This document shows, piece by piece, positions 18,166 through 39,960 of a stretch of 64,000 nt of DNA. Positions within the stretch are counted from its first letter, which is position 1; each line of letters opens with the position of its first letter. The DNA is taken from NCBI GenBank assembly GCA_016800925.1, contig JABCPU010000101.1, positions 1 to 64,000 on the forward strand. Direction: 5' to 3'. Origin of the DNA: Suillus spraguei. Its lineage: Eukaryota; Basidiomycota; Agaricomycetes; Boletales; Suillaceae. The notes under the pieces are model-generated. The model ran no database searches, was not told the DNA's origin, and was given only the letters and a program-made list of their open reading frames with translations. A program made the position numbers and the translations under genes.

Positions 18166-19763
18166 CACGCACCAAACTGGTCTGGTGCATGGCTGACTAA
18201 GCACTACTGCAGCTGAAAAATAGTACCAGGACTATAATAGCTTAGTGTTCCTCTATTCAGAAATCAATCCATGACACAGAATCGAAAGTTTCTTTTTGCT
18301 CGTAAAAGTTTGCTTATTATTTCTAATTCATTTTTTCATGGGTGTGTTTATGTATGTTTGGCTACAGAAACTACTTCATAATATTCCCACAGATGTCAGG
18401 TGACCCCAGCAAAATAATTACATAGAGTTACCCTGCAGAGAAACTCATGAAACACATTATGATTCACTCGCGTCATTTCTATACATCTACAAAAAAGTGC
18501 AGATTTATGCTTCAAATATTACATAATTGATATTCCTCCTAGGATAGCCACTAATAGTCACCTGATCTCAAATTTATGCATAGCCATTGATATCCCACAT
18601 GACTTCTTCTCACACCCTTGAGCATATTACAAATCAACTATGACAATATTCAATAAATAGGGTAGGTCAGCACCCCTACAAAAATGTGGGAAAACAGTAG
18701 CATAGCCATTCATTTTGTCTATATAAGACCCACCTTTTTGTCAATAAAAAAGAGAGATTTTCTCCCCCTCAGAAATATAACTGAGAGTGAAGTGTGAGCA
18801 GCACTATCAGTACACTGTCAAGTACATTGTCAACAACAGTAAGATTGGAAGTCTACTCTGTGAGACAGCACTACCTTGAGCTCACTGTGCTCAACAACTA
18901 GCAAGACCCTGAGCTCACTGTGTCTGACAACCAGCAAGACAACAAATCTTTTTTCTTTGACAAATTCATTCTAGTTTCTTTCATCATCTTTCTCTCTGTT
19001 TTTCTTTCTCTGTTGTCTGTGTCCTTGCTTCTGTTTCTCTTGAATCTTTCTCTTTTCTTCTTTTTCTTTGATTACTGGTATCTCTCTCTCTTTCAAAGTT
19101 TGCTGGTGCTAAGTGTCCTTGTGTTTCTGATATTTGTGTTGTCTCTTTAGTCCATCTAAGGCCAGAGTAGCTTAGTGGGAGAGACTTTAGGGGTTGACAG
19201 TGATACTTGATCTCACACATCTGAGTAGCGATACTGAGTTAAGGTCTTCACTGACTGATAGACTCTAGTTATTGAAAGGGGACTTGGTATTGAAATCCAA
19301 GGACGTCCGTTCCTGCTAACTGCTTAATACTCATAGTGAGTTCCTTGGCAGCAGGTTCAATAGTAAGCTAGAGATCTCTGAAGTAGTGATCAGTCTTGAC
19401 CAGGGATTCTACCTGCTTGTCTGAGAAGGTGATTGTTGTAACTTCCCACAAATTGCAGTAGCACAATTGTTGCAAAACACCTGCATTCCATTGGAGAGAG
19501 TAATTCGGCCAGTTACTTTTGTTTCTTAGTTTGTTTGACTTCTGTGTTTTTCTTTGAAGTTTAGTGTTTCGAGAATCTTTGTCATTGTCCAAGAGTTTGC
19601 TGATCTCACAGAAGTGACTCATTTGCTGACCGTAGCCTGGGGAACATAAACAGCCACCCACGTACAACCACGTTATCAGTCATTGGTATTTGTCTGAATC
19701 ACTGACCGTGGAGATATTTGGTTTTATAGGTCTTTATCTATAGATCATCTATCTAAGAAGACA
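18163..19763 (+). repeat. Gypsy-1 3' LTR
   Basis: This 1,601-bp copy of the 5' LTR begins TGACACGC and ends GAAGACA, directly abutting the outer LTR of Gypsy-2. Differences from the 5' LTR in the compared parts are a few substitutions and small indels. No clear polypurine tract precedes it. Confidence 0.9.
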
Positions 19764-20181
19764 ACGGTCTGCTGGGAAGTTCTACAATGTCCAGAAGAGG
19801 ACAAAGCGAAAGTACAAGGAACACGTTCCGAGTACAATCAAGGGTTCGGCCTCAAAGACAAGTCTAAGAGGTTCTGCGAGAATAGAGACTAAGGCTAAGG
19901 AGTGCTTAGACTTAGAGATGATTCAAGACGACTTAGGTTGGAGACCTAAGTGAAGGAAGTTCCAGGTAAAACCCAGTAAGATTAAAGTGAAGTATACAAG
20001 CGTAGTACAACGTGCTTAAATAGGCCAATATGTGCGCACGGACCAAGAGAGACATGAGAACATAAGTGCGTATCCAAAGAAGGAAGGCAACTATAGTACA
20101 GATGCATTGAGCATATGAGTCAGAGTTACGTAATGTCCACAGTAAAGGAGAAAATGAATAGGGGTACATACGACTGTAACA
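19764..20181 (-). repeat. Gypsy-2 3' LTR
   Basis: It matches 26,921-27,338 over its full 418 bp with few differences. It shares the text ACGGTCTGCTGGG at the left and CTGTAACA at the right. Confidence 0.85.
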
Positions 20182-20184
20182 TTA

Positions 20185-20194
20185 CCCCCTTTTT
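20185..20194 (-). other. polypurine tract of Gypsy-2
   Basis: On the minus strand the sequence AAAAAGGGGG lies three bases before the TGTTACAG start of the 3' LTR. That is where second-strand synthesis would be primed. Confidence 0.65.
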
Positions 20195-20213
20195 ACATGT
20201 AAAGTCACCGACT

Positions 20214-21683
20214 TTACTCGTCCTGGTTCTCATAGTAAACAGGATCATCACTATACTCGTAATCCTCATCAGCGAAGGATCCACTCCTCATATATGCAGC
20301 TTCTTCAACACCGGCGCGTCGTTTAGAGTACCTTCTTTTCTCTGCTTGAATTCGTTCATCGTCAAGCTGTTGTTCCCAGGAACGAAGTGCGTCGTAGAAT
20401 CCGTCATCTTTCCAAGTTAACGTAAAGGGGGGAGTCCTGACTCGTCGAGGACAATAAATGGATAGATGGGTAGGTGACCAGTATCTACAAACCTTGCACT
20501 GGTATTCTGTGCAGTTCTTTTGACGATGCCCAAGTAGTCCACAGACACGACATTTCATGTTTTCATCAGGATTAGAAATGGACTTGTGTAATGGTGATGG
20601 CAAAGTGATGGGTTTGGGGCTAATGGATCTGGCGCGCTTCTTCCCTTTATTCCGTTTCATACGTCTTAAAGCAAAGGTGTTGTCGCGCCTGAGTTGCGCC
20701 TGCTGGGTGGGAGTGAGAGTGTATGCCGACGTTGGGAGGTCGGGAGTGGTTCCTCGTTCAGCAACCACAAGAAGTTCATCAGAAGAAGAAGGGGAGGTGA
20801 TGCCAAAGTCTTTTACTAAGACTGGCGAGACAGGATCCATCAGACCAAATGATGACGGGATAGACATGGGAGGGTGGATACGAAGGTCTTGAAGTCGAGG
20901 ACCAAGCACTACCAGCTCAGCGACAGGGACTCCTAATAGTTTTGCGGCCTCATGCTGTTCTTCTGTGCAGGGTTCGTATAGCCCAACGGGATGTTCATAG
21001 GTGACTGTAATGGGGGACGGTGAGGTTGGCTGTTCAATGGGAGATGGGGTTTGTGGAGAGGTTAGGTCGGCTTGCGTTTGTTGTAAATTGGTAATGGCTT
21101 CTTCGACTAAGTTTCTGGCTGCTCTGGTTTCAGTGACTGATTGCTGGATGGTTTCGATGACTGCATTGGTGAGCTGTCCGATCTCTTGGACAGCAGTACA
21201 TAAGCCAGCAAGGGCATCAATACTAGAGTACATGCGCGAAGAAGAGGGTGTTGGAATAGGAAGTGGCGTATCTTCCTGCGGAGAGGGAGGTCGAGCAACA
21301 CCTGCTTGGCGTTCAGCCACGATGTGAATAGCTTCTTCAACATCACTCTTAAAAGAACTGGGAAGCAGCAGCATAGCATAAGAACGAATGCGTTTTTGTA
21401 GATGTAGGAGGCGCTGACGATATGTGATTTCTGTGGTTTCATTGGCAGTAGCTTCGATGAGAGCGGCGGTGCAAATGATGTTGACGAGGAGTAAGGCAGG
21501 GAAGGCGCCTCTTGCGGTGAGGATTCTCTCAATTTCGAGAGCATGTCCTTCGCATAGAAGGGCGGCTTCAATGTAAGAGGTGTTGTCGATTTCAGTGGCA
21601 AGGGTTCCGTAGTTTTCTGCATCGGAGTCATAGTCATTGTTGGCAACAGTGACGGGGGTGATGTATGCAGTGGGGAAAGACAT
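20214..21683 (-). CDS. Gypsy-2 3' ORF (489 aa) with a second zinc knuckle
   Basis: This uninterrupted frame starts with ATG at 21,683 and follows the integrase gene by 57 bases. It has an Ala/Leu-rich helical N-terminal half (with LVEEAITNLQQTQ, likely coiled coil), a Pro/Ser/Thr-rich middle, a basic patch (RRMKRNKGKKRARS), a CCHC knuckle CRVCGLLGHRQKNC, then a second Cys cluster (CKVCRYWSPTHLSIYC) and an acidic tail. Knuckles of this kind bind nucleic acid. It could be an extra capsid-like or RNA-binding protein. Its intactness contrasts with the damaged pol next to it. Confidence 0.7.
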   Translation of the reverse strand: MSFPTAYITPVTVANNDYDSDAENYGTLATEIDNTSYIEAALLCEGHALEIERILTARGAFPALLLVNIICTAALIEATANETTEITYRQRLLHLQKRIRSYAMLLLPSSFKSDVEEAIHIVAERQAGVARPPSPQEDTPLPIPTPSSSRMYSSIDALAGLCTAVQEIGQLTNAVIETIQQSVTETRAARNLVEEAITNLQQTQADLTSPQTPSPIEQPTSPSPITVTYEHPVGLYEPCTEEQHEAAKLLGVPVAELVVLGPRLQDLRIHPPMSIPSSFGLMDPVSPVLVKDFGITSPSSSDELLVVAERGTTPDLPTSAYTLTPTQQAQLRRDNTFALRRMKRNKGKKRARSISPKPITLPSPLHKSISNPDENMKCRVCGLLGHRQKNCTEYQCKVCRYWSPTHLSIYCPRRVRTPPFTLTWKDDGFYDALRSWEQQLDDERIQAEKRRYSKRRAGVEEAAYMRSGSFADEDYEYSDDPVYYENQDE

Positions 21684-21739
21684 TTGGAATAGTGTTTAGT
21701 TGATAAAGTGCTGGTGCGGTTTGATTGACTGAAGGATAA

Positions 21740-24700
21740 TCAGAGGGCGTGTTGCTTCTTATAAGCATTCAAGATTCGAGCGGAGTTCTTCAAGTTCTTT
21801 TCTGGGAGCCATTCGTTATCTCCCGATGAATATCCTTTCCAGGAAACAAGATATTGTCGGCGAGTGCTGGTTCCTTTGTGAGAAAGAATTGCTTCTATTT
21901 CATATTCTTCTTCTTCTTCAATGATGTCAGGTGGTGGTTCGGGGAAGTTCGGACCGTGTACGTCTGTTTCGGTGTAGGACGATAAGATGGAAGCGTGGAA
22001 TGTAGGATAAATTTTCCACTGCGGGGGGAGTTTCAGTGTGAACGTGATGGGCGATAAGACATCGATGATCGGGAAAGGTCCGTATCGCTTTGGCGTGAGT
22101 TTCCTTGATGGGAGTTTGAGCCTAAGATTAGCAGCAGATAGCCAAACCTTATCTCCGATTTTCCATGGAATGTACTTATCTCCTCGGGATCGTTCGGCCA
22201 TTGTTTGCATTGCAATGTTATGGCAGGCGATTGCTTCTTCTCTTATCTTCTGCAAGGATCGTACTCGATCTTCTGCTGCGGGGATGGATGAATCCGGGAT
22301 AAGGTGAGGGATAGCGCGTGGTTCGTATCCCATCATCAAATAGAAGGGTGATGCATTCCTTGCATCGTGTTTTCGGTGGTTGTGGACAAATTCGGCAATT
22401 GGTAGATGTTCTACCCAATCTTCAGGGTTGTTGCGGCAATAGATGCATAGATATGTTTCAAGTCCTTGATTTAGCCTTTCAGTTTGACCATCAGTCTGCG
22501 GGTGATAAGCCATAGATGGAGCAATGACGTAGTCGAGAAGTTGGGCAAGCTCCTTAGAGAAGCAAGATAGGAATTGCAGGCCTCAATCTAAGATGACTTT
22601 GTCATGGAGTCCAAATTGTCGGTAGACGTGTTTCAAGAATAGTTTAGCAATGCCTTTGGAAGTGATGGTTTTCAAACAAGGGATAATAATTACTCCCTTC
22701 ATAAGGCCATGGTCTACCATGACCAAGATACTGTCAAAGCCCCCAGAGACAGGGAGGTCAGTGATAAGATCGACAGAGACCTGGGAAAAGGGGTGAGTCG
22801 CAGAGGAGGGGATCGGGGCAAGTGGAGGTCGAACAGGGTGTGTATCGGCTTTCATTTGCTGACAAAGGGCGCAACCCTCGATGTATCTTCGAATATAAGA
22901 GCCCATAGTGGGCCACCAAGCTTCTCATTTGATGAGTTCTTCAGTTTTGAATCTACCGGGATGGCCCGCAGTAGGATGATCATGATACCGTTTTAGGATA
23001 TCGGGACGATGTGCCGGTGGAATATAGGCACGATTCTTAAAATAGAGGATGTTCTCCTCAATCTTCCAGTCAGAGAGTGCCGATTTCATAGGGGGAAGGC
23101 ACACACCATCAAGGGCGTCGGATGCTGTCTTAAAGACAGGGTTGTCGAGGGGGTCAGAGGATGACAATACATCCTTCAGGTCAGTGTCAATAAGACGAAT
23201 GGATAGAGCATCATGGAGGAGCATCTGGTCCTCGTTATCATCTTTGCCAGAGTCATAGTCGGGCCGGCACGATAGTGCATCAGGTACTGCCAATTTGGTA
23301 CCTGCAATGTGATGCAGTTCAATGTCGTAAATAGACAAAATCAGTTGCCAACATGCTTGGCGACAGGTAAGCTTCTGTGCACTTCTAAAGTACAGAAGAT
23401 TCCGGTGATCGGTGAATACCAGGATGGGGTGCGGGTTTCCTTCAAGATAATGGCGCCATTCATTCAATGCCCGGATTACGGCAAGGAGTTCCCGATCAAA
23501 GATCTGGTAATTGCGTTCTGCGGGGTTCAAAGACTGTGAGAGATATGCACATGGGTGATAAACGCCATTCTCGTCAGTCTGCAAGAGAACTCCACCAGTT
23601 GCTACGAGCGAAGCGTCGGTAGCAATAGCAAATTGTTGGGAAGGATCAGGGTTACGGAGTACTGGTTGGGATGTAAAGCATCATTTCAGTTCTTCGAAGG
23701 TGTCCATACATTTAGTTGACCAATCAAAGACCTTATCTTTCTTTGTTAATTCGATAAGGGGTCGGGCGATATGGAGTAATGGGAAATGAACGTTCAGTAG
23801 AAGTTGCAAAAACCGAGGAAGGATCGAGCATCTTTTACAGATTTCGGAACTGGCCATTCGGAGATTCCCTTGGTCTTGGCGGTATCCATAGCAACTTGTC
23901 CGGGTGAATTATCATTCCGAGGTATTCCACTTCTTCTGCATCGAAGGTGCATTTCTCCAGTTTCAAGAACAGATGTTCTTTTCGTATCTTCATCAAAACC
24001 CGTCTTGTCCGTTCACGATGTTCTGCCATAGTTGTAGAGAAAATCAGGATATCGTTCATGTAGATAACCATCCATCCTTCATTGATTTCCTGCTGGAAGG
24101 TACGATTCATGTATGCTTGGAAAGTTGCCAGGGAATTGCAGAGGCCAAAGAACATGACATTCGGTTCAAAGAGGCCAAACTCTGTAGTAAAAGCAGCTTT
24201 CCAGCGATCATCTGGATGGATGCGAATATTGTTATAGCCAGACCGGATATCCATTTTCGTAAAGAACTGTGCATTGTGAAGGCGTGCGACAAGGGAGATA
24301 GGAAGTGGGAGCGGATAGGCGTTTTTTACCGTCCAATCATTGATGTAGCATAATCTTGACAGGGACGCAATTCTCCACTCTTCTTTCCCACAAAGAAGAA
24401 GCCACTGGCTTGGGGTGACTTCGATTCTGAGATGAAACCTCTCGCAACGTTTTCATTGATAAATGTTTTGATGGCAGTGCGTTCTTTTTCCGATAGCGGG
24501 TAAACCTTAGAGTGCGAGGGATAAAACCGGGTTTAGTATCAATTCGATGATCGATACCGGGGCGTTCAGGGGGTAGTTTGTTTAATCCGTCTTTAGCAAA
24601 GACGTCTGCAAATCGTGCAAATAGTCCGGGACCAATTCTTCGAAGGGTTTCTTTTTCTTTTCCTTCTCGTCCGTGGCGAATTCTTGAGCTTTATTACTGT

Positions 24701-25159
24701 ATTTCGGAGGGGGAAGAGAAGTTGTGGAGTAGTTGGGGAGTTGTTCGAGTCGAGAAGTTCCATCATGTGTAAGGGGTGTATCCATGGATACTTCTTCAAT
24801 GATTCTCATGCTAACTCCATCGGTATCATATTCCATGAGGAATTCTCCATCTCCAAGCTCTAAGAGGAAATTTCACGGACTTCTGGTGCGTGCCAGACAT
24901 CTTGCATTGTGTTGAATTGGTTATCATCCTCTGTTGGGATCAACGAGGGCATGGGTTCTTCTTCATCAGGGGTTTCTTCAATTGAAGTCGAAGGAGTATG
25001 TTGAAGAGTTTTCGGAGGAACATAGAACTTAGATAGTTTCGGTATGTTTGTATCTCGTCCAGGAATTTCTTCTTCCGCTTTTCTTTTCCCATACTTCTGT
25101 TCTTCTATTGGCCGTTGCTCAATAGGCTCTGGTCCATCCATATTCGGGCTCGGATTCAT
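21740..25159 (-). pseudogene. Gypsy-2 Pol: RT, RNase H, integrase, chromodomain
   Basis: Read on the minus strand: RT palm MDIRSGYNNIRI and FGLCNSLATFQ, then the catalytic box as YMND instead of YMDD; RNase H (FTDHRNLLYF); HHCC integrase finger (HDHPTAGHPGRF ... CALCQQMK); integrase core (VDLITDLPVSGGFDSILVMVDH, then MAYHPQTDGQTERLNQ); and a C-terminal chromodomain (YEIEAILSHKG, YLVSWKGY, NEWLPEKNL). In-frame TGA codons occur after EELIK and in the VILD-stop-GLQF motif, where CGA (Arg) is expected. The RT part is split between frames around 23,600-23,840. The Asp-to-Asn change alone should abolish polymerase activity. Confidence 0.88.
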
Positions 25160-25261
25160 TCTTGCGTTTTTCTACGCGGGAAATCGGTAATACTGCTCAC
25201 GGCAGTTGTATGCAGGGAGTGGGGTCTGTAGTACATGGCATTGTACTTCTGGTTCGGATCT

Positions 25262-25843
25262 TTAGGAATAGGAGGAGTAATGAGGGATTTCGGAAGTTGA
25301 GAGGCCGCCATTTCTTAGGACGGCAATTGAAGACCGGGGGTAATCGTTCTTCTTCCGATCACTATCCATATTAATTTCAATTTCATCCGATTTCGTTGTT
25401 CGAGGGAGGATGAGCATTTCAGCGGCCCAGTCTATGCTTGGGTTCATGGCGCGTAACCATGGGATTCCCAGAAGGATTTGATCCCTTCTTCCTAGTTTGG
25501 TGATATTGAATTTTCCATACATGGTTCGTTCATCAATTTTGACCACCAGGAGACAGTAGTGCGTGATCGGTCCTCCTTTGATATAGGTCCTGTCAGCAGT
25601 TGTGACTTTGAAAGGTTTGTCAAGTTTTCTTTTAGTGATTTTATGGAGCTTCACAAACTCCTCAGAAATGAAGGTTCCAGCTGCTCCGGAATCTATAATG
25701 GCGGTGGTGTCGACGGATTTTAAACGCGTACGCGAGTGAAGGGTGATGGGAACATGGAGTTCTTTTCTTTCACCTACAGCACGTACAAGTCTTAGTAATA
25801 CATCAGGAGAAAAATATGTTGAATCCTTGTTTCTCCAATTCAA
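25262..25843 (-). CDS. Gypsy-2 protease region
   Basis: The frame contains the retropepsin active site AIIDSGAAGTFISEEFV and the later ILLGIPWL motif typical of gypsy proteases. It overlaps the end of the gag frame by four bases. It has no clear ATG start of its own (MNWRNK begins at the overlap), so it is probably expressed as part of a Gag-Pol product by frameshift. It ends before a linker (24,860-25,159) leading to RT. Confidence 0.75.
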   Translation of the reverse strand: MNWRNKDSTYFSPDVLLRLVRAVGERKELHVPITLHSRTRLKSVDTTAIIDSGAAGTFISEEFVKLHKITKRKLDKPFKVTTADRTYIKGGPITHYCLLVVKIDERTMYGKFNITKLGRRDQILLGIPWLRAMNPSIDWAAEMLILPRTTKSDEIEINMDSDRKKNDYPRSSIAVLRNGGLSTSEIPHYSSYS

Positions 25844-26676
25844 AAATCCTCAACAATCCGCCTCACAGTTTCTTTGTCTTCTTCTTCTTCTTTGACTTCG
25901 GTTTGTCGGAGCGGAGTCTTCTTCTTTCTGTCAGGACAATTATGAATGCGATGTCCTGTTTTCTTGCACCCGAAGCATTGTCCCTTCTTCATGCATTCGG
26001 ATCTCTCCTGTGTCGAGATTTGATCTACAATCATTGTGTTGGAGTCACAATTAGGTGTGTATCGTGCATTTCTATAGTTCTTCTTCTTCTGCTGTGGAGC
26101 ATGACGTGCCCTCATGGCTTGAAGACGATGATGGGAATTATCGATGGAAACGCAATGCAACACAACGTCTCGGAATACTTCTGAGACATCTCCTAATGCG
26201 AAAAGCTTTGTAAGGATGCCCCAATTCAGGCCATCTTGGAAGAATTGGATCTTCGTTGCATCGTCGGTGATATGAGCCTTGGCTGCAAGTGCCTCAAAGT
26301 TGGCGATGTAGGTGTGGAGATCTCCGCTTCCTTGTTTAAGGTCCCTGAGTTTCGTGAGTGCAGTTCCTTTGGTATCCACCGGGTCGAAGGCTTCTTTGAA
26401 GCTTTTCATAAAATCCGCCATTGTTCCATAACCAACTTTTTGTCCAGAGGTGTTGGTTGATTGAGCATGGTCAAGAAATTGCCCTTTCCAGGACTTGGTG
26501 TTCTTTTCAGTCATAAAGGATGTTATGAAAATGATCTTCTGTTTGTCGGTGGTATAAAGCTTTTCGTTGATATCAAAGCATAGATTGCATGACTGGATAA
26601 ATTCGTGAGAGTTGTCACGATCTCCGTCAAAACCGATTGGCTGACCGATTTTGTATTCAAATTCTTTGGTCAACAT
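25840..26676 (-). CDS. Gypsy-2 Gag with zinc knuckle (278 aa)
   Basis: The ATG at 26,676 opens a typical retrotransposon Gag: an N-terminal capsid fold with WKGQFLDHA and MKSFKEAFDPVD, the helix LTKLRDLKQGSGDLHTYIANF, and the knuckle CFGCKKTGHRIHNC near residue 240. It forms the particle that packages element RNA. The 5' leader between the LTR and this ATG is 244 bases. The frame is intact. Confidence 0.85.
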   Translation of the reverse strand: MLTKEFEYKIGQPIGFDGDRDNSHEFIQSCNLCFDINEKLYTTDKQKIIFITSFMTEKNTKSWKGQFLDHAQSTNTSGQKVGYGTMADFMKSFKEAFDPVDTKGTALTKLRDLKQGSGDLHTYIANFEALAAKAHITDDATKIQFFQDGLNWGILTKLFALGDVSEVFRDVVLHCVSIDNSHHRLQAMRARHAPQQKKKNYRNARYTPNCDSNTMIVDQISTQERSECMKKGQCFGCKKTGHRIHNCPDRKKKTPLRQTEVKEEEEDKETVRRIVEDF

Positions 26677-26920
26677 ATTTGGCGATTCGTCTGGTGAGTT
26701 ATACTTTCTCGGTGCCTACACGCGCTGTCTTGCTGTCCATTAGGGCTTGTCTTCTGTCAGAGGGCTCCTCTTGACAATCAGTTCAGTGTACGCGTACACT
26801 AATCTGCTTATCTAAGCAATCAGGGTTCAGGGGCGAAGACTGGATAGTTGACGATCAGGTTGACTTTAATCTTTTGTTACGAACTGGGGTGGCATCACCA
26901 GCGACAGTGAAAAGACACAG

Positions 26921-27338
26921 ACGGTCTGCTGGGAAGTTCTACAATGTCCAAAAGAGGACAAGGTGAAAGTACAAGGAACGCGTTCCATGTACAATCAAGG
27001 GTTCAGCCTCAAAGACAAGTCTAAGAGGTTCTGCGAGAATAGAGACTAAGGCTAAGGAGTGCTTAGACTTAGAGACGATTCAAGATGACTTAGGTTGGAG
27101 ACCTAAGCGAAGGAAGTTCCAGGTAAAACCCAGTAAGATTAAAGTGAAGTATACAAGCATAGTACAATGTGCTTAAATAGGCCAATATGTGCGCACGGAC
27201 CAAGAGAGACGTGAGAACATAAGTGCGTATCCAAAGAAGGAAGGCAACTATAGTACAGATGCGTTGAGCATATGAGTCAGAGTTACGTAATGTCCACAGT
27301 AAAGGAGAAAATGAATAGGGGTACGTACAACTGTAACA
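26921..27338 (-). repeat. Gypsy-2 5' LTR
   Basis: Same 418-bp repeat as 19,764-20,181. In element orientation it starts TGTTACAG at 27,338 and ends CCCAGCAGACCGT at 26,921. Its outer edge is the junction with KDZ coding sequence. Confidence 0.85.
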
Positions 27339-29078
27339 GTCACCTTCTATGACATCAATTGTCAATACAACAAGCACTTTTGTGTTCGGGTGGATCGAAG
27401 CTGATACCTTGACATGGTACCGGAACTGACCATCATTCCTGGAATTGGGTTGTGGCATGTGCATGGACATCAGGACAGTTGCTATGTCCGATATGCTTCG
27501 AATTTTATTGAAGGCATTGGCTGGATTGATGGAGAGATCATGGAGACCCTATGGGCGCGTCTCAACCTGATTTCCCCTGCCGCTTGGGGAATGTCATCCC
27601 CGCACCGAAAGGAATGTCTTGATTATCAGATGAACGATTCCAATTTCTGCAAGATGATCCGCATGAAAAGGACTCTTTGCCGGAAATACAAGCTGGCGAA
27701 GAATGGCATCGCCGAAAGTGGCAAGGCTTTCGACAGACTAGATGAAGCTGCACCCGGCAATTTAAAGACACAATGGTTAGCCAGTGAGATGGTCGCTCAG
27801 TCCAAGAGAATCAGGGATCCTGCGGCGATGGATTTATATGAAATCAATATCAAGAAGGGTAAGTTGACATTCTTTGTCTCTGTGGAGCTCCGAATTCATT
27901 TTGCACTTAGCACCAAGCAAAAAGGAGATCGAGCTTAGACTACTAGAAGCAGGTAATGCCCGTAATGCAGCACCCTCTCGCAGATCTGTGGCAACATGGA
28001 TATCCATTGGGTTGGCAATTGAAGAGGCTCAAATTGCATTGCTCATTGAGGTCTGCAGAATTGGAAGACGATCAATGGAGACACAGAGATTAGATATCGC
28101 CCAGCAATGTGATCGTCTCCAAGGCCAGATAGATGAATTCACTCAGTCTGCTCTTACGCATCTGGGAGAGGGATTTGATGCAGATGATGATCCTGATGAC
28201 TTGAACATAGATATTCTTGATGATATCAATGATGACCTGGCAGATTTCACCGAGACATCTGATGCGTGGACAAACTCACCTGAGCTCACCATAATTCCAT
28301 TGCCATCAAACCTCGGGGTTGAACATTGCAGACGCTGTATGGCAGAGGATCTGATTCTGTTGGAGATGTCGCTTCATGAAGGGCAGGCCAATGATGCCCT
28401 GCACAATCTCCGCATTCACTTGTGCAACAAGGCTATCCTGTTCCGAACAACAGTTAGGCAAGCCAAATATCAAGCCCTAAAAACTCGAGCATGGTCCCAG
28501 GTGACATCAGTGCAGCAGGCAGTATCCCTACATGCCAGTATATATACAAAAACCAGGAAGCAAATGATACAACTTGAGCCAGGGCCAGACCAGCTTCAGA
28601 AATACAAACCCCTGCTTTGCGAGCAGCTCAAAATCAGCACTGCCGTCGGCGATCCAAACGCCCGAGGTCAGCAAAATGAGTCCCTCGCTTGGTTCTGGTC
28701 AGTGGAAGTCGATATGGAGGGTCCAGAAAATTTGTGGAATGAGGAATGTGAGTTTGGGCATGCTTGATATATCCCGTGGTGAGCTGACAGGACCCATCCC
28801 AAGTTTACCAAGTTCATTGGCTTCGGGCAAAGGCACTACGGGATCGATGGATGGAAGAAATATCATTGGTGCAATCAGAGATGGATTGGACGTGTAACTT
28901 TTTCTTGTGGAAGGCAACCCAATGGGGTGCCCAGATGCAGGAATTATTGTTGAAACAACTTCCAGGTCATGCATGCTATGCTGGAAGGCAGTCTCAAATG
29001 TATTCCTTACTAGCTCAGGATGCACAGGCAGCATTTCAAGACCTGCAGCCCACGTTCATCGATGGTGCACATGAATGA
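27339..29078 (+). pseudogene. KDZ transposase, 3' half only
   Basis: KDZ (Kyakuja-Dileera-Zisupton) enzymes are DDE-type DNA transposases. The open text starts at the retroelement junction with VTFYDINCQYN, holding one catalytic Asp. It continues with IIPGIGLWHVHGHQ and GEIMETLWARLN, carrying the predicted catalytic Glu, then YQMNDSNFCKMIRMKRTLCR. Two introns are clear: 27,859-27,910 (52 bp) and 28,748-28,803 (56 bp). After splicing the C-terminal block reads FYQVHWLRAKALRDRW and ends with CYAGRQSQMYSLL near the TGA at 29,076. The 5' half, with the earlier catalytic Asp and any zinc cluster, is missing. An in-frame TGA at 27,402-27,404 replaces what is probably Arg. Confidence 0.87.
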
Positions 29079-29249
29079 ATTTGTTTTGCTGATGAAACGC
29101 ATATTTGACACCCAAACATTGAGTCCCGGGAATTGTCCGGGTCAGCCCATGTCAGAGTTTGAATTTCTAATCCATCCATCAGTGACTCATATCATCACCT
29201 CTTCACCATCTGTCAGTTTCATTGCCAGCGTCACACTCTTGCATTAGCC

Positions 29250-30052
29250 ATGCCTGAAACTCCTGCATCCACATCTGGCACTCCAAATACTGGACATCAC
29301 TGGCAACCCATGAAGCTGAACCTTCAAGATATTTCTTGTACTTTGAATATGGCTGCATTGCACATCCGCGCATGTATCTCTAAATATCAGATGGAGGCTG
29401 CTAACAACCATCCCTCTTCTGCCCGGATCATGTACTTTAAAGCTGGGCTGCAATGGGAGATCAATGTAAGTGACTGATGACCGGATGACCAGCTGACTTT
29501 GGTGGGCAATGCTGAGATTTCCAACAGACATTTGTTACTCCACTCCTGCAGTACTCAGCTGCAAGGAACATCGTTTCTGTTGTTCCAAGCCCGGTCGCTC
29601 ATGTTCTGACATTGTATCCCATGCTCACCTGGAACACTGTTCCAGACCACATCTTTTCATCCCACCTATGTCAGTTTGATGATGTCGCAGCTCCGGGACA
29701 TCCATCCTGGATTATTCCCAGCTATGATACTCCATGGTGGATGGGACACACCAAAATTCCAAATGAACCATGGCAATGGGGTCAAATCATGAGGTCCTGT
29801 GTCGTTCACTACCAGCATTGGATGGAAAATGGAGTTGAGGATGATGGCTTGGTTCTTCCTGAGGAGGTAAATGACTCATCAGGCCCATCAGTGATGGGAC
29901 TTAAGATGATTCGAGCATGCCTGGTAGCATTGATGGAGGAGCAAGATGAGGGTATCCATGAGAAGATGGCAGAGGTGAAGATGTACACTTACATGCTACA
30001 GAGATTGAAGAGAGGCAGGAGAGTGGAATCCTCTTCACTGTGTTTAGATTAG
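29250..30052 (+). CDS. companion gene of the KDZ element, 238 aa, unknown function
   Basis: Two exons (29,250-29,465 and 29,552-30,052) join cleanly across an 86-bp GTAAGT...CAG intron into 238 codons. The protein starts MPETPASTSGTPNTG, has a helical middle (DISCTLNMAALHIRACISKY), a Trp-rich stretch (DTPWWMGHTKIPNEPWQWGQ) and ends in a basic, helical tail (YMLQRLKRGRRVESSS). No family is recognised. It lies 171 bases after the KDZ stop on the same strand and has no stop or frameshift. It could be a DNA-binding partner or cargo of the transposon. Confidence 0.5.
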
Positions 30053-30129
30053 AAAGGTCTTCATTTCATACATGATGTAAAATATTATATTCCGTCCAAA
30101 TGATTGTCTTGACTCCTGAATATTTTGTT

Positions 30130-31060
30130 CCGGATTTCGAGGACTGGATTTCAAGATCCGGATGTAGAGTCCTAAATCCAAAATGCTGAGTGGCGAATGC
30201 CCGAGTGCCGAGGTACTCAGAGTTTGGGACTCAATTCATGGGACTCAACTTCCAAATGGCAAGATTGCCTCACATATTTCTGAGTGGCGAGTCACGAATC
30301 TTAGGTACTGAACCCCGAACCCCAAAATTGTGGACTACCAGATTTCATGGTTTGGGGTTCAGCACTCAACATGTGTGGATCAATAACTTTCACATTATTC
30401 TGAGTGCCGAGTGCCAAGTTCCAGGTTCCGGGGCTCGGCAGTCGGCGTTCGGCACTTAACATGTGTGCATCAATATTATTCACAATGTTGTGAGTCCCAA
30501 GTTCTGGCTGTCGGGGTTCGCAGTTGGGCACTTTACATGTGGGAATCAGTATCTTTCACATTGTTCTGAGTCCTGAGTCCCGACTGCCAGCTCCCGGGGT
30601 TCGCGGTTGGGCACTCAACATATGTGGATCAATAACTTTCACATTATTCTGAGTCCCGAGTCCCGAGTTCTAGGTGCCGGGGCTTGGCAGTCGGCGTTCG
30701 GCACTTAACATGTGTGCATCAATATCATTCACAATGTTGTGAGTCCCGAGTTTCGGCTGCCGGAGTTCAGGGTTCGGCACTTACTATATGTGAATTCATA
30801 TCTTTCACATTGTTATCAGTCCCGAGTGCCGAGTGCCAGCTGCCAGGGTTCGGTGTTCGGCACTCAAAATGTGTGGATCAAAGTCTGTTGCCTCACATTG
30901 TGCTGCCTCACACTTTGCTGAGTCCCGAGTGTCAAGCCTGAATTCAGACTATTGATCATTGAGTCATGAATTTCGAGTATCAAGTCCCGAGTCCCGAGAT
31001 ACTCAGAGTTAGGGACTCAATTCATGGAACTTGACTTCCGACTTGAGTTCCAGAACTGTT
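30130..31060. repeat. minisatellite with a three-part higher-order repeat
   Basis: A motif CATGTGTG-ATCAATA-CTTTCACATT-TTCTGAGTCCCGAGT recurs at about 30,370, 30,459, 30,535, 30,617, 30,709, 30,785 and 30,868. The spacings of about 89, 76, 82, 92, 76 and 83 bp show that three diverged subunits form a ~250-bp unit repeated twice. Related flanking text (TACTCAGAGTT-GGGACTCAATTCATGG) occurs near both ends, at about 30,210 and 31,003. It has no coding potential. Confidence 0.75.
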
Positions 31061-31135
31061 GATGCTCTAATTGGTACATGGTATTCGTGTGTTGCTACTA
31101 ACATGGGTAACAACTCTTTCAACTTCTTTGATCTT

Positions 31136-32442
31136 TCACACCATGGTTAGTATGTGGCCTTCAACCCTAGCCCATCCACATGAGGGAACCCCAGCATAAA
31201 TGTGCACAGAATCCCTCATATACCATGCCCAAGCAATCCGATCCCCTTCCACTCCATCAACCCCATGTCTCACAATTCTTCCCAAAAATGCAATCATACA
31301 GCCGGAATCATACCTGAATTCCAGCTGAAGGCTTGGCATACTCATCCGAGCATTAGAATAGTCCCCCACGGTGGTGAGAATATCAAAGCATTCAGGAATC
31401 AATAAATGGTCTCGATGATTGGGGGTTTCCCGATTGGAAATGATGGAGAGGGTGTTAAACACGGATGCCCAGTACTGCAGGGTCTCTGGCATCTGTGGCA
31501 GTTCCTTGCTCAGTGCCTTATCTCCGAGGTGTGACAAGGCTTGTAACCCTGCAAAGTACTGCTGAGGATGCATGACCCTGAGTGCCGCCGATGCGATGGC
31601 TGCTGGCCTTGCAATAGCTTTCAGGATATTCTTGGAGGAGGGTCCCTTTAATGATGCAGATACCTCCAGATCTGACAGATTCTATGGGATTGGTGAGTTT
31701 GACTCCAGAAATCACCATCTCATCACATCCTACCTTGTGGCCCTGTTGAAACCATGCCGGAGATAAATTGATGCATCCAGGAGTTGACCCAACATTTTCC
31801 GAGCCCTGTTTGAACCATTCTTGATTATATCACCAATTGCCATCAGCCTTTACACTTTTTTCGAGGCTTGGACCCAGCAAATCGGTGGCCGCCCTGATTT
31901 CCTTCTGTAGGTACCATTTGATATTCAATATCCATTGAGTAACAATCTACACATTATGCACCTGGGTGGTCTCGGTCAGGGCGTCCAGGAGGTACCATGC
32001 GATGATGGTACCAGAAACATTGATAATTGTGGCAGGTTTGTCCACCAACTTTGTGCCCTCATGGCCAGGAGGACACCTCTCAAGCAACTTCTCCTCTCTC
32101 TCCTCATTATGCCCAGTGTTCTTTGGGGATATCAATTTGCTATATCTTGCAATATCAATCTGCATCTTAACTGTCATGAAGGAATTTGAATGATCAAACA
32201 CATTTTCAACATCTGCAGGAAGACCCACTGGGATTTTTATATGCCTTTATGAGTACATCAGCCAAGCAATTGCACACCATCACCAGATCAGTGTCCAGGT
32301 TTGGAGAAGGTATAACTGGTTCTCCTCCAGTCTTCTCTGCATTGAATTTTTGTTTGGTATATGCCCCTGCTTCATGAGTGACGGCCAGGGCCCAAGTGCG
32401 CCAGATTTTTATGTCACAAGTGGACATGGAAGAAGTGTTCAT
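31136..32442 (-). pseudogene. TET/JBP-like 2OG-Fe(II) dioxygenase, linked to KDZ
   Basis: Minus-strand exons can be joined across introns at 31,905-31,961 and 31,682-31,733. The product contains GCINLSPAWFQQGH, ALRVMHPQQY, and the catalytic double-stranded beta helix: FNTLSIISNRETPNHRD with the iron-binding H-x-D (31,409-31,417), DILTTVGDYSNARM, then GRIVRHGVDGVEGDR with the second iron-binding His and the 2-oxoglutarate-binding Arg. TET/JBP enzymes oxidise 5-methylcytosine or thymine in DNA, and fungal copies are often linked to KDZ transposons. The catalytic residues are present. However, a TGA at 31,830-31,832 replaces a likely CGA, and a one-base gain near 32,232 breaks the N-terminal half. 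The true start upstream of 32,442 is not visible. Confidence 0.75.
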
Positions 32443-32629
32443 GTTAGAAGTTGATATTGGGAAATCAGACGCTGAATGCTGGATGTCCAGACTTTGGTGT
32501 TAAAGGGGTGGAGATAGCGAGGATCAGATAAGGGAACCTTGGATGATGTTGGCTTTCAAAGCTGTATTATCATCCATTGCTCAATGAAATACCAGATGAT
32601 TGGAATTGTGCTGGATATCTGATATTCAT

Positions 32630-33400
32630 TTGTCGAGACCCGGGTTCAGAACTTGGCATCTCATAGGGCAACCACTTTTTGCACCCTGGTGTCCACATTC
32701 TACAAGACAATATAAGCGCCATAAAAGGCCATGTCAAGCAGAGACCCAGGTCTCAGAACTCGGAACTTGGTAAGCTTCATCTGATTTTCGGGGGTCGTAA
32801 CTGGGTGTCTTGTAGGGCAACACAAGCCTCGCACCCCGCTTTCCACATTCTACAAGACAACCTAAGCGCCATAAAGGCCATTTCAAGAGATCACTTGCTG
32901 CTCCCAGAACTTGGTATGCTTCACTCAAATTTCGGGGGTCGGAACTGGGTGTCTCATATTGACTGAATTATGTGTTGAGACCCGGGTCTCGGAACTCGGA
33001 ACTTGGTATGCTTCATCTGATTTTCGGGGGTCGGAACTGGGTGTTTTATAGGGCAACACAAGCCTTGCACCCCGCTTTCCACATTCTACAAGATAACCTA
33101 AGCACCATAAAGGCCATTTCAAGAGATCACTTGCTGCTCCTGGAACTTGGTATGCTTCACTCGAATTTCAGGGGTCAGAACTGGGTGTCTCATATTGACT
33201 GAATTATGTGTTGAGACCCGGGTCTCGGAACTCGGAACTTGGTATGCTTCATCTGATTTTTGGGGGTCGGAGCTGGGTGTCTTGTAGGGCAACACGAGCC
33301 TCGCACCTCGGTTTCCACATTCTACAAGACAACCTAAGCGCCATAAAAGGCCATGTCAAGACAGCACCTGCTGCTCCGGGAACTCAGTAACTGTGATTTA
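32630..33400 (+). repeat. tandem repeat, ~236-bp unit, about three copies
   Basis: GAGACCCGGGTCTC-GGAACTCGGAACTTGG starts units at about 32,741, 32,976 and 33,212, with a partial one at 32,635. Each unit also contains two related half-units with GGAACTTGGTATGCTTCA and GGGGTCGGAACTGGGTGT. The unit length is not a multiple of three, so the repeated small frames are not a gene. Confidence 0.8.
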
Positions 33401-33459
33401 TTACCTCCTCTGATTTGTATTATATGCAACTCCCTCAGCTCCGTCATGTCTACAATTAT

Positions 33460-33835
33460 CATACACATGGGCCCACCCGTCTATATTTTATACTGTACAA
33501 CACCCTCGGCCCACCCGTCTAATAAATATTTATATAACACTCTCGGCCCACCCATCTAATTTAATATGTGTCTGGGCCCACCCATGTATGTGATAACAAG
33601 TACCCTTCACATACCTGTCTATTTGATACACATCTACCTTGATACACCCATCTACATGATATCCAACTACCTCGGCCCATCTGTCTACCAGATATTCATG
33701 TACATCGGCCCACTCATCTACTCTACATATTCCTTGCATGGGCCCACCCGCTGTCATCAGGAATAATATTCCTCCCAGCCCATCCATCATCAACGAGAAT
33801 ATTTCTACCATGGGCCCATGGTCTGCTGGCCCGTA
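33460..33835 (+). repeat. short irregular tandem repeat with GGCCCACCCGTCTA core
   Basis: The core (C/G)GGCCCACCCRTCTA recurs roughly every 35-55 bases, alternating with AT-rich linkers. At least nine recognisable copies lie between 33,468 and 33,830, some decayed. No coding function is seen. Confidence 0.7.
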
Positions 33836-33950
33836 TCATACGGGATATTATGCACGTCCGTTCATTCATATAATACAGAGATAGTTCACTGTAATATGTG
33901 ACTTTGCGCTGGCGGCTGGTAGTAGAGTGGATTTTCAAGTTAGTGGTGAT

Positions 33951-34408
33951 GTAAAATAGACCTCACTCATAGGTTCATCACGTGACATAGTGTGACTTTT
34001 CAACAAAATTATGTATAACTCATTGTATACAAAACATGAGCAAAATCTGTTCCATAATTATGTGTGGATAGCCTGTAGCAAGCCGAGCATGTATTTTTTA
34101 TGATGTAATGTAAGAAACTGAGAGACGAGTAGACTTTATATTGTCAAAATGTCTTGAGTGCACCACCAGCCTGACAGGCATGTCACAAATGGGTCATAAA
34201 GGTAAATTTGCTACCAAAAAGCCTACTCCTCCTTCAGTTGGCCGAAAATAAAAATTCTGAGTAGACCATTTTGATATAGTAGTATGTATATACAAAATCA
34301 TGGAACAGATTTTGCTAATTCTAATTTGAAGTAAAGTTACGAGCCGAAATCATGCATTCTGGCCTCAAGTCAAATGATGAACTGGTGTATGAATGAGGTC
34401 TATCTTAC
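33951..34408. mobile_element. foldback / MITE-like element
   Basis: The ends are inverted: GTAAAATAGACCTCACTCAT at the left and the complement of ATGAATGAGGTCTATCTTAC at the right. Further inverted matches (GTTCATCA and AGCAAAATCTGTTCCAT) extend the arms to about 105 bases each, around a ~245-base centre. There is no transposase inside. No target duplication was identified. Confidence 0.6.
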
Positions 34409-35682
34409 AAATGTCTGATGTTGCATGCAGTCAACCTTCATATCACCAGTACACTCACAATAATTACATGAATCATGATTACTTGATAATAATATATTGC
34501 TGTATTTATCATTCATCAGAGCTTCAGGCTTCAAGCTTCCAGTTCGACAACTCAATGCCAACACCAACAGAGCACAATGCGGAGAGTCAAAATTGACTGC
34601 GCCGGTGCTATGCCAAGGTGTGACTCGATGTGACCATATTTTGCAGATTAGCAGTCAGACCCTGAATTTTCTCGGCTTTCATCCAACACCACACCACAGT
34701 GTCCTAAAAATGAGCAAAAATCAGATCTATGTAGAGGCAGTACAAATCTATAACACTCTAAATTTGTGGAAGATAGTATGAAGTGGTTGACGAGTTACAA
34801 AAGATTTGCTGAAAATGTTGCAGAATACCTGGAATGATAGTATCAAGAAACCCAGAGGCAGAAAGGTGGCCCTAATGGCTAGTACAGCTACTTTGGGTGG
34901 TGATGAGGGAAGCATGAATGCTTCTTCTTCAAGCCCAAAGTCTGGCAGATGTGTAAGCCTGACATCAGAACTGGGTGCAGATACATACTAAAAATCACAG
35001 CTCCCTTGCCATCATATAGCTTGATTAAATCAAGCACTGCAGAGGACTTGATGGTGAAAGAGCAGTTGCCAGTTCTCTTTTCGTGGTTGGAAAAAGGGGT
35101 TTATGCTTCAAGTTTAGGGACATTTTTGTATATGATAATGTAATTGCTCACTGGCTTCTATACATGGTTCAGAGAAACAAAGAACAATACCTTTATGCAG
35201 TACATTATGTCCTACCCCATTACTTCATTATGCATACAAGCCATGCCAAGGTCATGCATTATCCAATATGCAATATACATACAATTACATACGGAACATC
35301 GCTGGGATCCTGAAAAGTTCATGGATTATGAGTGACTGTATCTTACAATAAATTCCTCGCTGCTAGAGGCACATTTTTTGTTCACCTAGTCGCACACCTG
35401 ATAGAGGTCTGTCCTATCCAATGTCGCATACTGCTGCCAGTGCTGTCAAGGAGGAAGCGCTGCTGAATTCCAGCCTGCTTCTCATTGAGTAGTAAATCAG
35501 TGAGTATGAAAATGTGGTTACTCACCTTCCCAAAGTGCATCCTGGCAATACTGTGCACTGTAACATGACCAATCCTTTTCCTTTATCTGATGAGGTGCGC
35601 TAATCATCAATGAGTTCAACATCACTCCTCGTTCTCCATCTCTCCATTGTGCTTGACTCAGAATTCTGATAAAGAAAGCTCT
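34409..35682. other. AT-rich spacer without a supported gene
   Basis: Only short frames are present (for example 34,806-34,991 and 34,949-35,143), with no recognisable domain or convincing splice pattern. The segment may include remnants of an unidentified element. Confidence 0.4.
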
Positions 35683-35756
35683 TACAGCTGTTTTCATAAA
35701 TATGCGGAATCACAAAAGTTGAAACTCGTGCATCAGAAGTGCCCAGCCAGGACCTC

Positions 35757-36068
35757 ATGAGCACTTTGACAAATCCAGCACCAATTCAGAGTGCTTCACT
35801 GAAAGACAATGTCGTCACCATCACCCTCCATTGAGATTTAGGGCTACATTCATTGTCCATCTTGATACATACACAAAGACTACCACTGAAACTAATGGCA
35901 AAGCAAAGTCCAAGGAAGTCAAGTCTATAAAAGTCAAGGAACTTGTATTTCAAATCTCTGAGCCCAACTACCTTGAATTTCTGACTATCATCCTCGCAAA
36001 ACATTAGAAAGTCACAATACAGGGTTACTGAGAGGAAAAAGTATGGTTTAAAGTATCACGTTCATGAG
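35757..36068 (+). pseudogene. foreign coding fragment inside the Tc1/mariner element
   Basis: This segment occupies the place of the transposase C-terminus but reads better on the plus strand. From ATG 35,757 it gives SLKDNVVTITLH. After a frame change near 35,830 it reads FIVHLDTYTKTTTETNGK and then KVKELVFQISEPNYLEFLTI, with a final shift to RKSQYRVTERKKYGLKYH. The alternation of hydrophobic and charged residues looks protein-like, but no family is named. It may be a captured gene fragment. Confidence 0.35.
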
Positions 36069-36773
36069 ACTTACCACATGTTCACGCAAGAATCAGACAA
36101 AGCGCTCACTCATGACTGGTCCTTCAATAATGTCATAGGCAATGATCCCATCAAGAGTCAGTATTGGCAGGATCGAGTAGTGTTTGCCTCGCACGAAACA
36201 TTTCCTTTGGACACACCTTGGACAAAATGGTCATTACGTACCAATAGAAGCAAAGTTTGACATACCTTGTTCCAATTTTTGATCTCCCATGGCATCGAAT
36301 GATTGTTCTTTCATCTTTTGCAGCCTCATCTCCAAACATCAAAATTTCTGGGTCAGGTGCTATCTCAGCAATACTATTCATGAAAATGGCACGTAGTTCC
36401 TTGTTCCTTTCAAGAGCATATGCCAAAATACACTTGCGATTGACATGCAGTCGATGAAATGTGCAAAAAAGTGTTGGTATGGACACAAACATTCCACGGT
36501 GAGAGCATAGTTCATGTTGTAGCTCATCAAGATAGATGGTGGGACGATGACGGAGGATGGTTGTAATGAATGTGATGTTGTTGACAGTGAGGCTGCAACA
36601 CCGGTCTTGATTGCTACAGTGGTACTGTGAAACTAAGGGAAAAAGTTGCAAGACTTTGTATACGAGAGTCTTCTTGACCCCAAGCAGATGGCATTATGCT
36701 TGACAGAATGCCCACATCGACATAGAATAGGAATTCGAGCTTTTAAGTCTGCTGAAACAGTGCGTGGTGGCAT
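36068..36773 (-). pseudogene. Tc1/mariner transposase, N-terminal and central part
   Basis: The ATG at 36,773 gives MPPRTVSADLKARIP, the usual start of fungal Tc1-type transposases. A frameshifted helix-turn-helix region follows, then RPTIYLDELQHELCSHRG, NKELRAIFMNSIAEIAPDPE and the catalytic block LMFGDEAAKDERTIIR. A 50-bp GTATGT...CCAAG intron joins IGTR to CVQRKCFVRGKHYS and LDGIIAYDII. An in-frame TGA then stands where CGA is expected (RFV-stop-FLREH). The C-terminal catalytic Asp region is missing. Confidence 0.8.
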
Positions 36774-37072
36774 ATCAACTATGACAGTGAGTGTTCAGCA
36801 CTGACAGCGCGCTGTATTGCAGGCATTTCTGACGCGCGAGTTTCAACTTTTGTGATTCTGCATGTTTATGAAAACAGCTGTAAGACTCAGTTCGGCAACC
36901 AGATGTTGACCAACATTTGGCAAACCTTGTGTGAGATGTTCTTGGCTGACTATTTTGCTGAAGGTCAGAGCTTGAATGACATAGGTCGAATTTGGACTAA
37001 CCCTAGTACGCTGATTAGTATCACTATAACTTGAATACATTGTTGATTCATACTCTATGGGTCCTTCCTCCA

Positions 37073-38030
37073 ATGGATCTCCAATCAGAGCCTCCGCGTT
37101 TTGTGCCCCAACGTCCAGAAACTCGATGCCACCTCATCCAATACTCGATTCTTCTAGTCAGCATCTTAATCAGTGCTACAGCCAATGTATTAGAGTCAGT
37201 GTATGCCAAAGATCCGGAGCTGTATCATACCTCTGCTCCCTCTGGTGAAGCCTGGGTGATGGAGCTGTTGTCTGGTCACCCAGAACAAATTCAATGTGAA
37301 CTTGGCGTGCATGCGCACGTTTTTGCAGAGCTTATATCCGAGCTTTGTGTCCCTGGCCATACCAACTCCAAGTTTGTTTCGCTAGAAGAACAACTTGCGA
37401 TTTTTCTGTATACTTCAGTCACAGGCCTGTCTGTCAGGCATGTCAGTGAAAGATTTCAACACTCAAAAAATACAATTTCTCAGTAAGTACGCGCTCATAC
37501 TATTTATAATACACTGATTCATTGTATGTCCTATATAGTTATTTTCACAAAATGCTCAACATCTTCTCGTCCTCCCCCTTTATACTAACTATGTTCACTT
37601 GCCAGACAACTCTATTCCTGAAAAAAATCGCTCTAACCCTAAATTTTGGCCGTTCTTCAAAGATACTTATTGACGGTAGCCACATTCATGTGTCACCTTG
37701 TGCATTCAAATGAGGTCCCTATTGTAATTGCAAGGAATTTGTCTCCCAGAACTGCTTGTTTGCTTGTGACTTCGAACTCAGCTTTACATATGCGCTCACT
37801 GGCTGGGAGGGGTCAGCTTCAGATGCTCATGTCTATGAGGCTGCAGAGGGCCATGACCTTCGCATTCCTGCATGGAAAATACTTCCTTGCAGATGCAGGT
37901 TTTCCTCTGCGGCCTGAACTACTCATTCTGTATCATAATGTGTGCTACCACCTTGCAGAATGGGTAGCAAGCTTGTTATCCCCTCCTGCAAGGAAAAATA
38001 TATACAGGAGGCTGGCTCTCTGAGCAGCCG
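37073..38030 (+). pseudogene. PIF/Harbinger-type transposase (HARBI1-like), frameshifted
   Basis: Exon 1 (37,073-37,482) reads SLEEQLAIFLYTSVTGLSVR and RHVSERFQHSKNTISQ, the helix-turn-helix region of Harbinger nucleases. A GTAAGT intron follows. Later text gives NPKFWPFFKD, the first catalytic Asp in IDGSHIHVSP, the second in ACDFELSFTYALTGWEGSASDAH-like text, and CYHLAEWG near 37,960. At least three frame changes (about 37,580, 37,665 and 37,712) disrupt it. Element ends were not identified. Confidence 0.8.
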
Positions 38031-38960: not shown

Positions 38961-38969
38961 ATAAACAAA

Positions 38970-39680: not shown

Positions 39681-39681
39681 C

Positions 39682-39960
39682 TTATTTGTGGACCGCTGCC
39701 CCTGCCTTGGGGACCGCTACCCCTGCCTCGGGAGGAACTGCCTTTTGTAGAGGAACCCCTTCCTCGGGAATATCTCTCTTTGCGGGGATTGCGCAGCCTG
39801 GTACAGGTGGGGCGCCAGGTGGTGGGCAAGGTGGCGGTGGGCCGTCTGGTTGTGGGCCGCCTGGTAGGTCAGGTGAGATTACTTCGATGACAGACGCAGT
39901 AACTGCGCCAGCCATCGCTATGGCAGTAATGACTACATTGGCGAGTGAAGTGAATTTCAT
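39682..39960 (-). CDS. small secreted Pro-rich protein with a dibasic processing site (92 aa)
   Basis: The ATG at 39,960 starts a basic-hydrophobic leader (MKFTSLANVVITAIAMAGAV, cut likely after TAS), so the product should enter the secretory pathway. The mature part has a Pro/Gly stretch (PGGPQPDGPPPPCPPPGAPP), two Cys, a Lys-Arg site in IPAKRDIPEE suited to a Kex2-type protease, and a tail with PLQKAVPPEAGVAVPKAGAA. A TATA box lies 40 bases upstream. Short length, signal peptide and genomic isolation among repeats fit a small secreted protein or processed peptide precursor. It is intronless. The function is unknown. Confidence 0.6.
   Translation of the reverse strand: MKFTSLANVVITAIAMAGAVTASVIEVISPDLPGGPQPDGPPPPCPPPGAPPVPGCAIPAKRDIPEEGVPLQKAVPPEAGVAVPKAGAAVHK

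What the first reader, a model, noticed from the sequence alone, without database searches (positions are those of the whole stretch)
27339..32442. KDZ transposase linked to a TET/JBP-like DNA dioxygenase and an unknown companion gene
Within 5.1 kb lie a KDZ transposase remnant, a 238-aa uninterrupted gene on the same strand, and a convergent gene with the TET/JBP signature (NHRD for H-x-D, and RHGVDGVEGDR for the second His and the Arg). Linkage of fungal TET/JBP genes to KDZ elements is established knowledge. Here it suggests a transposon that carries its own 5-methylcytosine oxidase. The identity of the dioxygenase rests on motifs I recognise, not on a search.
Basis: partly seen in the sequence, partly recalled or inferred. 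Interest (0 to 1): 0.8.

Follow-up and report, generated by a model that had tools for sequence, protein, structure and literature searches.

The report
Decayed mushroom transposon with demethylase gene
This stretch is a broken copy of a large jumping gene, common in the mushroom Suillus spraguei, that carries a transposase, a TET-type DNA-demethylating enzyme and a small unknown protein; transposons of this kind were already known, but the unknown protein looks undescribed.

Summary
The window lies in a genome that matches the Suillus spraguei assembly. At 27339-33900 it holds the right-hand 6.6 kb of a 17-18.5 kb DNA transposon of the KDZ superfamily: transposase C-terminus, a 246-aa companion gene in two exons, a tandem array, a convergent TET/JBP gene closest to CcTet, and the right terminus. 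The genome has 279 left-end and 293 right-end matches. Three full-length copies carrying all three genes have perfect 7-bp target duplications; 102 of 149 listed companion copies have a convergent TET within 4 kb (about 2 expected). The window copy is probably dead: its left ~10.6 kb are missing and its TET gene has a premature stop. TET-bearing KDZ transposons are published (Kojima 2025), so the kind is known. What looks new is the companion: a predicted helical protein without Pfam, PDB or BFVD match, found in 19 Suillus species and, among hits with an organism name, nowhere else. Copies of the TET-bearing element decay strongly at CpG; against a gypsy family this gives no sign that the enzyme spares its own copies, but a small TET-less KDZ sample points the other way.

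The parts
19758..27338 (-). gypsy-type LTR retrotransposon that cuts the KDZ element; complete LTR 26875-27338, left LTR 19758-20181 lacking about its first 37 bases
   Evidence: LTR pair 95.6% identical; TGTTACG at 26875 and CTGTAACA ending at 27338
27339..29078 (+). C-terminal part of the KDZ transposase gene (5' part missing)
   Evidence: PF18758 E 1.9e-15 at 27405-27938; tail aligned to P0085; C1231 copy has the missing 5' exons
29250..29465 (+). companion gene, exon 1 (72 codons)
   Evidence: tblastn with P0001, 89% identity
29528..30052 (+). companion gene, exon 2 with stop
   Evidence: tblastn with P0001, 94% identity
30349..30881 (.). tandem array between companion and TET gene; related units occur in the left half of other copies
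   Evidence: Tandem Repeats Finder periods 76-249; BLAST to left-half pieces
31136..32442 (-). TET/JBP dioxygenase gene: first exon 32442-32230, catalytic exon 31681-31136; premature in-frame stop at 31830-31832
   Evidence: PF12851 E 3.6e-16; CcTet E 5e-23; exon layout by tblastn with P0120 and P0121; stop
32741..33384 (.). subterminal tandem repeat, period 236, 2.7 copies
33741..33900 (.). right end of the element; imperfect terminal inverted repeat with the left end of other copies
   Evidence: edge shared with C703, C305, C493, C397, C337; inverted match of 33741-33891 to the left end in C625, 73.5% over 151 bases, and of 33741-33852 to that in C1231

Best explanation
It is a truncated copy of a large (17-18.5 kb) cut-and-paste DNA transposon of the KDZ superfamily, Kyakuja-like by its 7-bp target duplications, which has multiplied in Suillus spraguei. 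A complete copy carries, from the left end, a leftward gene of unknown function, the KDZ transposase, the companion, a tandem array and the convergent TET/JBP gene. Shown: gene content, ends, duplications, linkage, abundance. Inferred: the transposase acts on the two ends; the dioxygenase oxidises 5-methylcytosine (perhaps also 6-methyladenine, as CcTet does) on transposon DNA and so counters silencing; the companion is an accessory of one of the two. Likely history of the window copy (inference): an LTR retrotransposon inserted into the transposase gene, then a deletion took the outer edge of its left LTR and the left ~10.6 kb of the element.
For: Pfam KDZ and Tet_JBP over their cut-offs; CcTet as best solved relative; 23 of 24 other scored loci match both left and right parts of 27300-32600; end patterns hit 279 and 293 places, reversed controls 0; 4 of 21 end pairs with perfect 7-bp duplication and 1 with 6 of 7, three of the four full-length with all three genes; 102 of 149 companions with convergent TET, about 2 expected; TET exon N/S 0.51 in frame against 1.03 and 1.26.
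Against: 16 of 21 end pairs show no duplication, so many pairs are rearranged or not one insertion. The left terminus is GAG, not the CA reported for Laccaria Kyakuja. No expression or methylation data. CpG decay is strong in the TET-bearing copies, which does not favour protection of the element in cis.
Confidence: 0.92

Rival explanations
1. The companion is not a gene of its own but a C-terminal exon of the transposase, joined by splicing.
For: The Suillus decipiens gene model P0085 (609 aa) runs from transposase tail into companion; both lie on one strand 170 bases apart.
Against: A stop closes the transposase frame at about 29078 and an ATG opens the companion at 29250; database models of 237-246 aa begin there as separate proteins in several Suillus species.
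Confidence: 0.15
2. The dioxygenase is a host gene family that merely sits beside KDZ elements, not cargo of the transposon.
For: 48 of 150 listed Tet_JBP matches have no listed companion within 4 kb (both lists are capped).
Against: TET lies inside the terminal edges, between 7-bp duplications, in C236, C337 and C427; orientation is the same in 102 of 102 linked pairs.
Confidence: 0.03
3. The dioxygenase serves silencing or host regulation (marking transposons with oxidised cytosine) rather than escape of the element.
For: A study of Laccaria and Coprinopsis discusses 5mC oxidation as a possible suppression mechanism on transposons (PMC8889193, passages); CpG decay in TET-bearing copies is as strong as in a gypsy family.
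Against: The gene is carried and kept in frame by the element itself, which fits a benefit to the element.
Confidence: 0.2

Closest known systems
TET+ Kyakuja DNA transposons of Agaricomycetes (Kojima 2025, PMC12730594)
   Same: KDZ transposase with an AG-type TET/JBP gene in one element, 7-bp target duplications, host in an order (Boletales) where that paper reports TET+ Kyakuja.
   Different: Left terminus GAG instead of CA; imperfect terminal inverted repeats (the paper says Laccaria Kyakuja have none); companion gene not described in the main text parts seen.
CcTet of Coprinopsis cinerea (PDB 7vpn, 7w5p, 8jkk)
   Same: Same domain; H-x-D, second His, Arg and the Asp337 position conserved in the window copy.
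   Different: At the Gly331 position the window has Leu (Ser in the consensus of 30 Suillus proteins); window copy has a premature stop upstream.
TET+ PHISTA and IS3EU elements of rust fungi (Kojima 2025)
   Same: TET-bearing transposons that also carry a further gene (a third protein; an alpha-kinase).
   Different: Other transposase superfamilies and other accessory proteins; not compared by sequence here.

Membership tests
KDZ superfamily | KDZ transposase domain over the Pfam cut-off | tested here: met
   57.6 bits, cut-off 26.6; other exons in C1231 copy 93.6 bits
Kyakuja | 7-bp target site duplications (8 bp in Zisupton and Dileera) | tested here: met
   4 of 21 end pairs 7 of 7, one 6 of 7
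Kyakuja | 5'-CA..TG-3' ends and no terminal inverted repeats, as given for two Laccaria families | tested here: not met
   right end TG, left end GAG; imperfect inverted repeat of about 150 bases. So filed as KDZ, Kyakuja-like, not as Kyakuja
Kyakuja | place in the transposase tree | not tested
   no named Kyakuja sequences were at hand
TET/JBP dioxygenase | Tet_JBP domain with H-x-D, second His and Arg | tested here: met
TET/JBP dioxygenase, AG type | Asp337-position Asp and Gly or Ser at the Gly331 position | tested here: inconclusive
   Asp present in the window and 21 of 30 copies; Gly331 position Leu in the window, Ser in the Suillus consensus
TET/JBP dioxygenase, AG type | oxidation of 5mC (and 6mA) in DNA | not testable with these tools
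   needs the protein

The most novel reading that the evidence does not exclude
The companion is the founding member of an element-borne accessory protein family, arisen or captured in Suillus, that works with the TET dioxygenase or the transposase (for instance by steering the enzyme to element DNA) and has travelled with them through the genus.
Probability: 0.35. Interest if true: 0.55.

Novelty: new member of a known kind. Interest (0 to 1): 0.36.

Why it matters
Whether transposon-borne TET enzymes defend the element against DNA methylation is open. S. spraguei offers a dense test bed: hundreds of element ends, many TET copies with intact or substituted catalytic residues, and a strong CpG decay signal that probably records methylation. 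The first look here gives mixed evidence on protection in cis. The companion is a concrete candidate for an unknown partner of such enzymes.

Tried and rejected
Chance adjacency: rejected by linkage. Simple nested insertion with the rest of the transposon left of the retrotransposon: rejected; left-half pieces of copies C1231 (L045, L042, L039) and C305 (L047, L044) match the window only at 27339-27944 and, in repeats, at the array and the right end, as far as the rows printed show (at most 12 rows printed per piece). Frameshift in the TET gene near 32230: rejected, no indel there in the 27 copies that span it and the frame change is an intron border in P0120 and P0121. Fold of the companion: two AlphaFold2 models (pLDDT 60.7 and 65.1), helices only; no Foldseek match with E <= 0.001 in PDB or BFVD; no NCBIfam family over its cut-off. 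Selection on the companion within the genome: inconclusive (N/S 0.83 in frame, 1.02 and 0.63 in shifted frames, 21 copies; 4 of 21 show an in-frame stop, bases inserted relative to the window left out); its N/S and stop count, run in the wrong frame, were dropped. The companion part failed. Iyer et al. 2014 is not in the library. Supplements of Kojima 2025 could not be read. Gene A (leftward gene of the left half, not in the window) gave no Pfam family over its cut-off and was not searched further. No tree was built.
Full report
What is there. The window is contig C14 of an 86.2-Mb, 1256-contig genome. It is most likely Suillus spraguei: the companion protein is 93% identical to BDR07DRAFT_1485979, and contig lengths listed for BDR07DRAFT proteins (for example 133519, 83043, 368440, 315765) equal lengths of contigs of this genome (C345, C483, C403, C492). 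Pfam finds the end of a KDZ transposase at 27405-27938 (+) and a Tet_JBP domain at 31136-31681 (-), both over the cut-off. The best solved relatives of the latter are CcTet entries, E 5e-23, with aligned H-x-D, second histidine and arginine.

The element. A DNA search with 27300-32600 scored 25 of 1126 candidate loci. Besides the window itself, 23 of the other 24 match both its left and right parts, the main left-part matches at 91-94% identity; the 24th, C323, matches only up to query base 3606. Right of the TET gene the match to a second copy stops at 33900, and copies in C703, C305, C493, C397 and C337 stop at the same letters with differing flanks. The left end was found by walking outwards in C1231, C625 and C305. 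The two ends form an imperfect inverted repeat (73.5% over 151 bases between the C625 left end and window 33891-33741). Patterns from the two ends, up to 3 mismatches, hit 279 and 293 places, 0 for the reversed controls (only the first 100 places of each are listed). From these lists I chose by eye pairs facing each other; of 21 pairs seen with both flanks, four have a perfect 7-bp duplication (C236, C337, C427, C336), one has 6 of 7 letters (C481), 16 have none. C236, C337 and C427 are 17-18.5 kb long and each carries KDZ, companion and TET; C336 is 9.6 kb and its content was not looked at. The left half, absent from the window, holds the rest of the transposase and a leftward gene without a Pfam family over its cut-off.

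Linkage. Of 149 companion copies listed (150 of 434 candidates scored), 102 have a Tet_JBP match (150 of 197 candidates scored) within 4 kb, every one downstream and on the other strand; about 2 would be expected by chance. Likewise 102 of 150 Tet_JBP matches have a listed companion. I did not sort the 47 and 48 without partner; contig ends, decay and the capped lists may each contribute. In other species, 21 companion entries share species and contig length with a TET entry, in 10 of the 19 species with a companion; on contigs of a megabase this is weak, but some have consecutive locus numbers, for example S. lakei 1835752 and 1835753, S. cothurnatus 1383075 and 1383076, S. paluster 1087731 and 1087732. 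For that count 13 of the 120 listed TET rows were left out: those of S. brevipes and S. ampliporus and one without organism name (counted). These two species have TET entries but no companion hit, so the companion may not be universal among Suillus TET elements.

The companion. It has 246 aa in two exons (29250-29465, 29528-30052). A single-sequence search gave 84 proteins at E <= 1e-3, a profile search 119 at E <= 1; every hit with an organism name is Suillus, six carry none. No Pfam family reaches its cut-off in the window's open frames or in 10 relatives. AlphaFold2 predicts helices only, at low confidence, and Foldseek finds nothing with E <= 0.001. Transposase tail and companion are fused in one S. 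decipiens gene model (P0085), so a joined product is not excluded.

State of the window copy. The transposon is cut at 27339 by an LTR (26875-27338) of a gypsy-type element whose left LTR lacks about its first 37 bases. The left half, about 10.6 kb in C1231, has no collinear match in the window, so a deletion after the insertion is the simplest history (inference). The TET gene has a premature stop at 31830-31832; 22 of 30 copies compared are open at that codon, 8 including the window are not. The catalytic exon and the companion are open. This copy therefore probably makes neither a working transposase nor a full dioxygenase.

Selection and decay. Among 30 copies of the TET exon, changes outside CpG are depleted at nonsynonymous sites (N/S 0.51, against 1.03 and 1.26 in shifted frames); 3 of 30 have an in-frame stop. 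CpG sites change by transition 22.6 times as often as other C/G sites in the TET exon and 30.9 times in companion exon 2 (a ratio that does not depend on reading frame); a gypsy piece gives 3.3, with subfamilies and older copies mixed in. In 9 of 30 TET copies the Asp337-position residue is Asn and in 10 of 30 the Arg is Gln; the three iron ligands are kept in 30 of 30. At 95-98% pairwise identity, CpG changes make up 50.5% of differences among TET copies (273 pairs), 36.1% among companion copies (160 pairs) and 50.3% among gypsy copies (6 pairs); at 90-95% they are 32.3% (128), 32.1% (1) and 37.5% (41); above 98% they are 53.7% (33), 52.6% (49), and, in a KDZ family taken as TET-less (no TET was looked for beside it), 65 of 75 differences (6 pairs of 4 copies). 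The last figure is against my reading, though that family is also richer in CpG (o/e 1.04 against 0.62 and 0.38). Pairs are not independent and the control samples are small. I read the whole as no clear sign that carrying TET spares the element's own copies, not as proof that it does nothing.

Known or new. Kojima 2025 (PMC12730594; outline, text parts 1-4 of 7, figure legends and find passages seen) describes TET-bearing transposons in 11 lineages, including Kyakuja in five orders of Agaricomycotina with Boletales among them, 7-bp duplications, CA..TG ends and AG-type enzymes close to CcTet. The kind is thus known. Iyer 2014, the origin of the KDZ-TET link, was not readable. Four library searches (30 of 71 papers listed, 20 of 332, 15 of 65, 15 of 32) listed no paper on such an element in Suillus, and the held main text of Kojima does not contain the word Suillus; its supplement could not be checked, so the claim that the companion is undescribed is provisional. 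PMC8889193 and PMC13297926 were seen as passages only; the latter calls transposon-encoded TET/JBP dioxygenases yet to be functionally characterised. The role of Gly331 and Asp337 is taken from Kojima's text and the abstract start of PMC11040006 (listing only).

Noticed in passing
G000, listed end matches: Ends facing each other lie from about 4.4 to 20.8 kb apart (paired by eye), so shorter, possibly non-autonomous versions may exist besides the full-length element.
   Followed up: no
C540, C594 left flanks and C493 right flank: C540 and C594 share one left flank ending GAATGTC, and C493's right flank begins GAATGTC: perhaps the two sides of one insertion separated by exchange between copies.
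   Followed up: no
L048, L046, L082-L083: Copies of the same LTR family border or host the element elsewhere: C305's left end is cut by one, C625's copy sits beside gag and LTR sequence of it, C336's copy has flanks that read like the LTR (by eye).
   Followed up: partly
window 1-8000, 12001-20000, 28001-40000 against 40001-64000: CpG observed/expected is 0.28-0.49 in these transposon-rich stretches and 0.84-1.00 in the gene-like right part.
   Followed up: partly
window 50664-51699 and 54369-55398: Two near-identical open frames that look like tandem copies of an aldo-keto reductase gene (name recalled, not searched).
   Followed up: no
window 37643-38020: Weak DDE_Tnp_4 match, E 0.019, below cut-off: a possible Harbinger-like remnant right of the element.
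   Followed up: no
S. brevipes and S. ampliporus proteins: These species have TET entries but no companion hit; a comparison of their elements could date the gain or loss of the companion.
   Followed up: no
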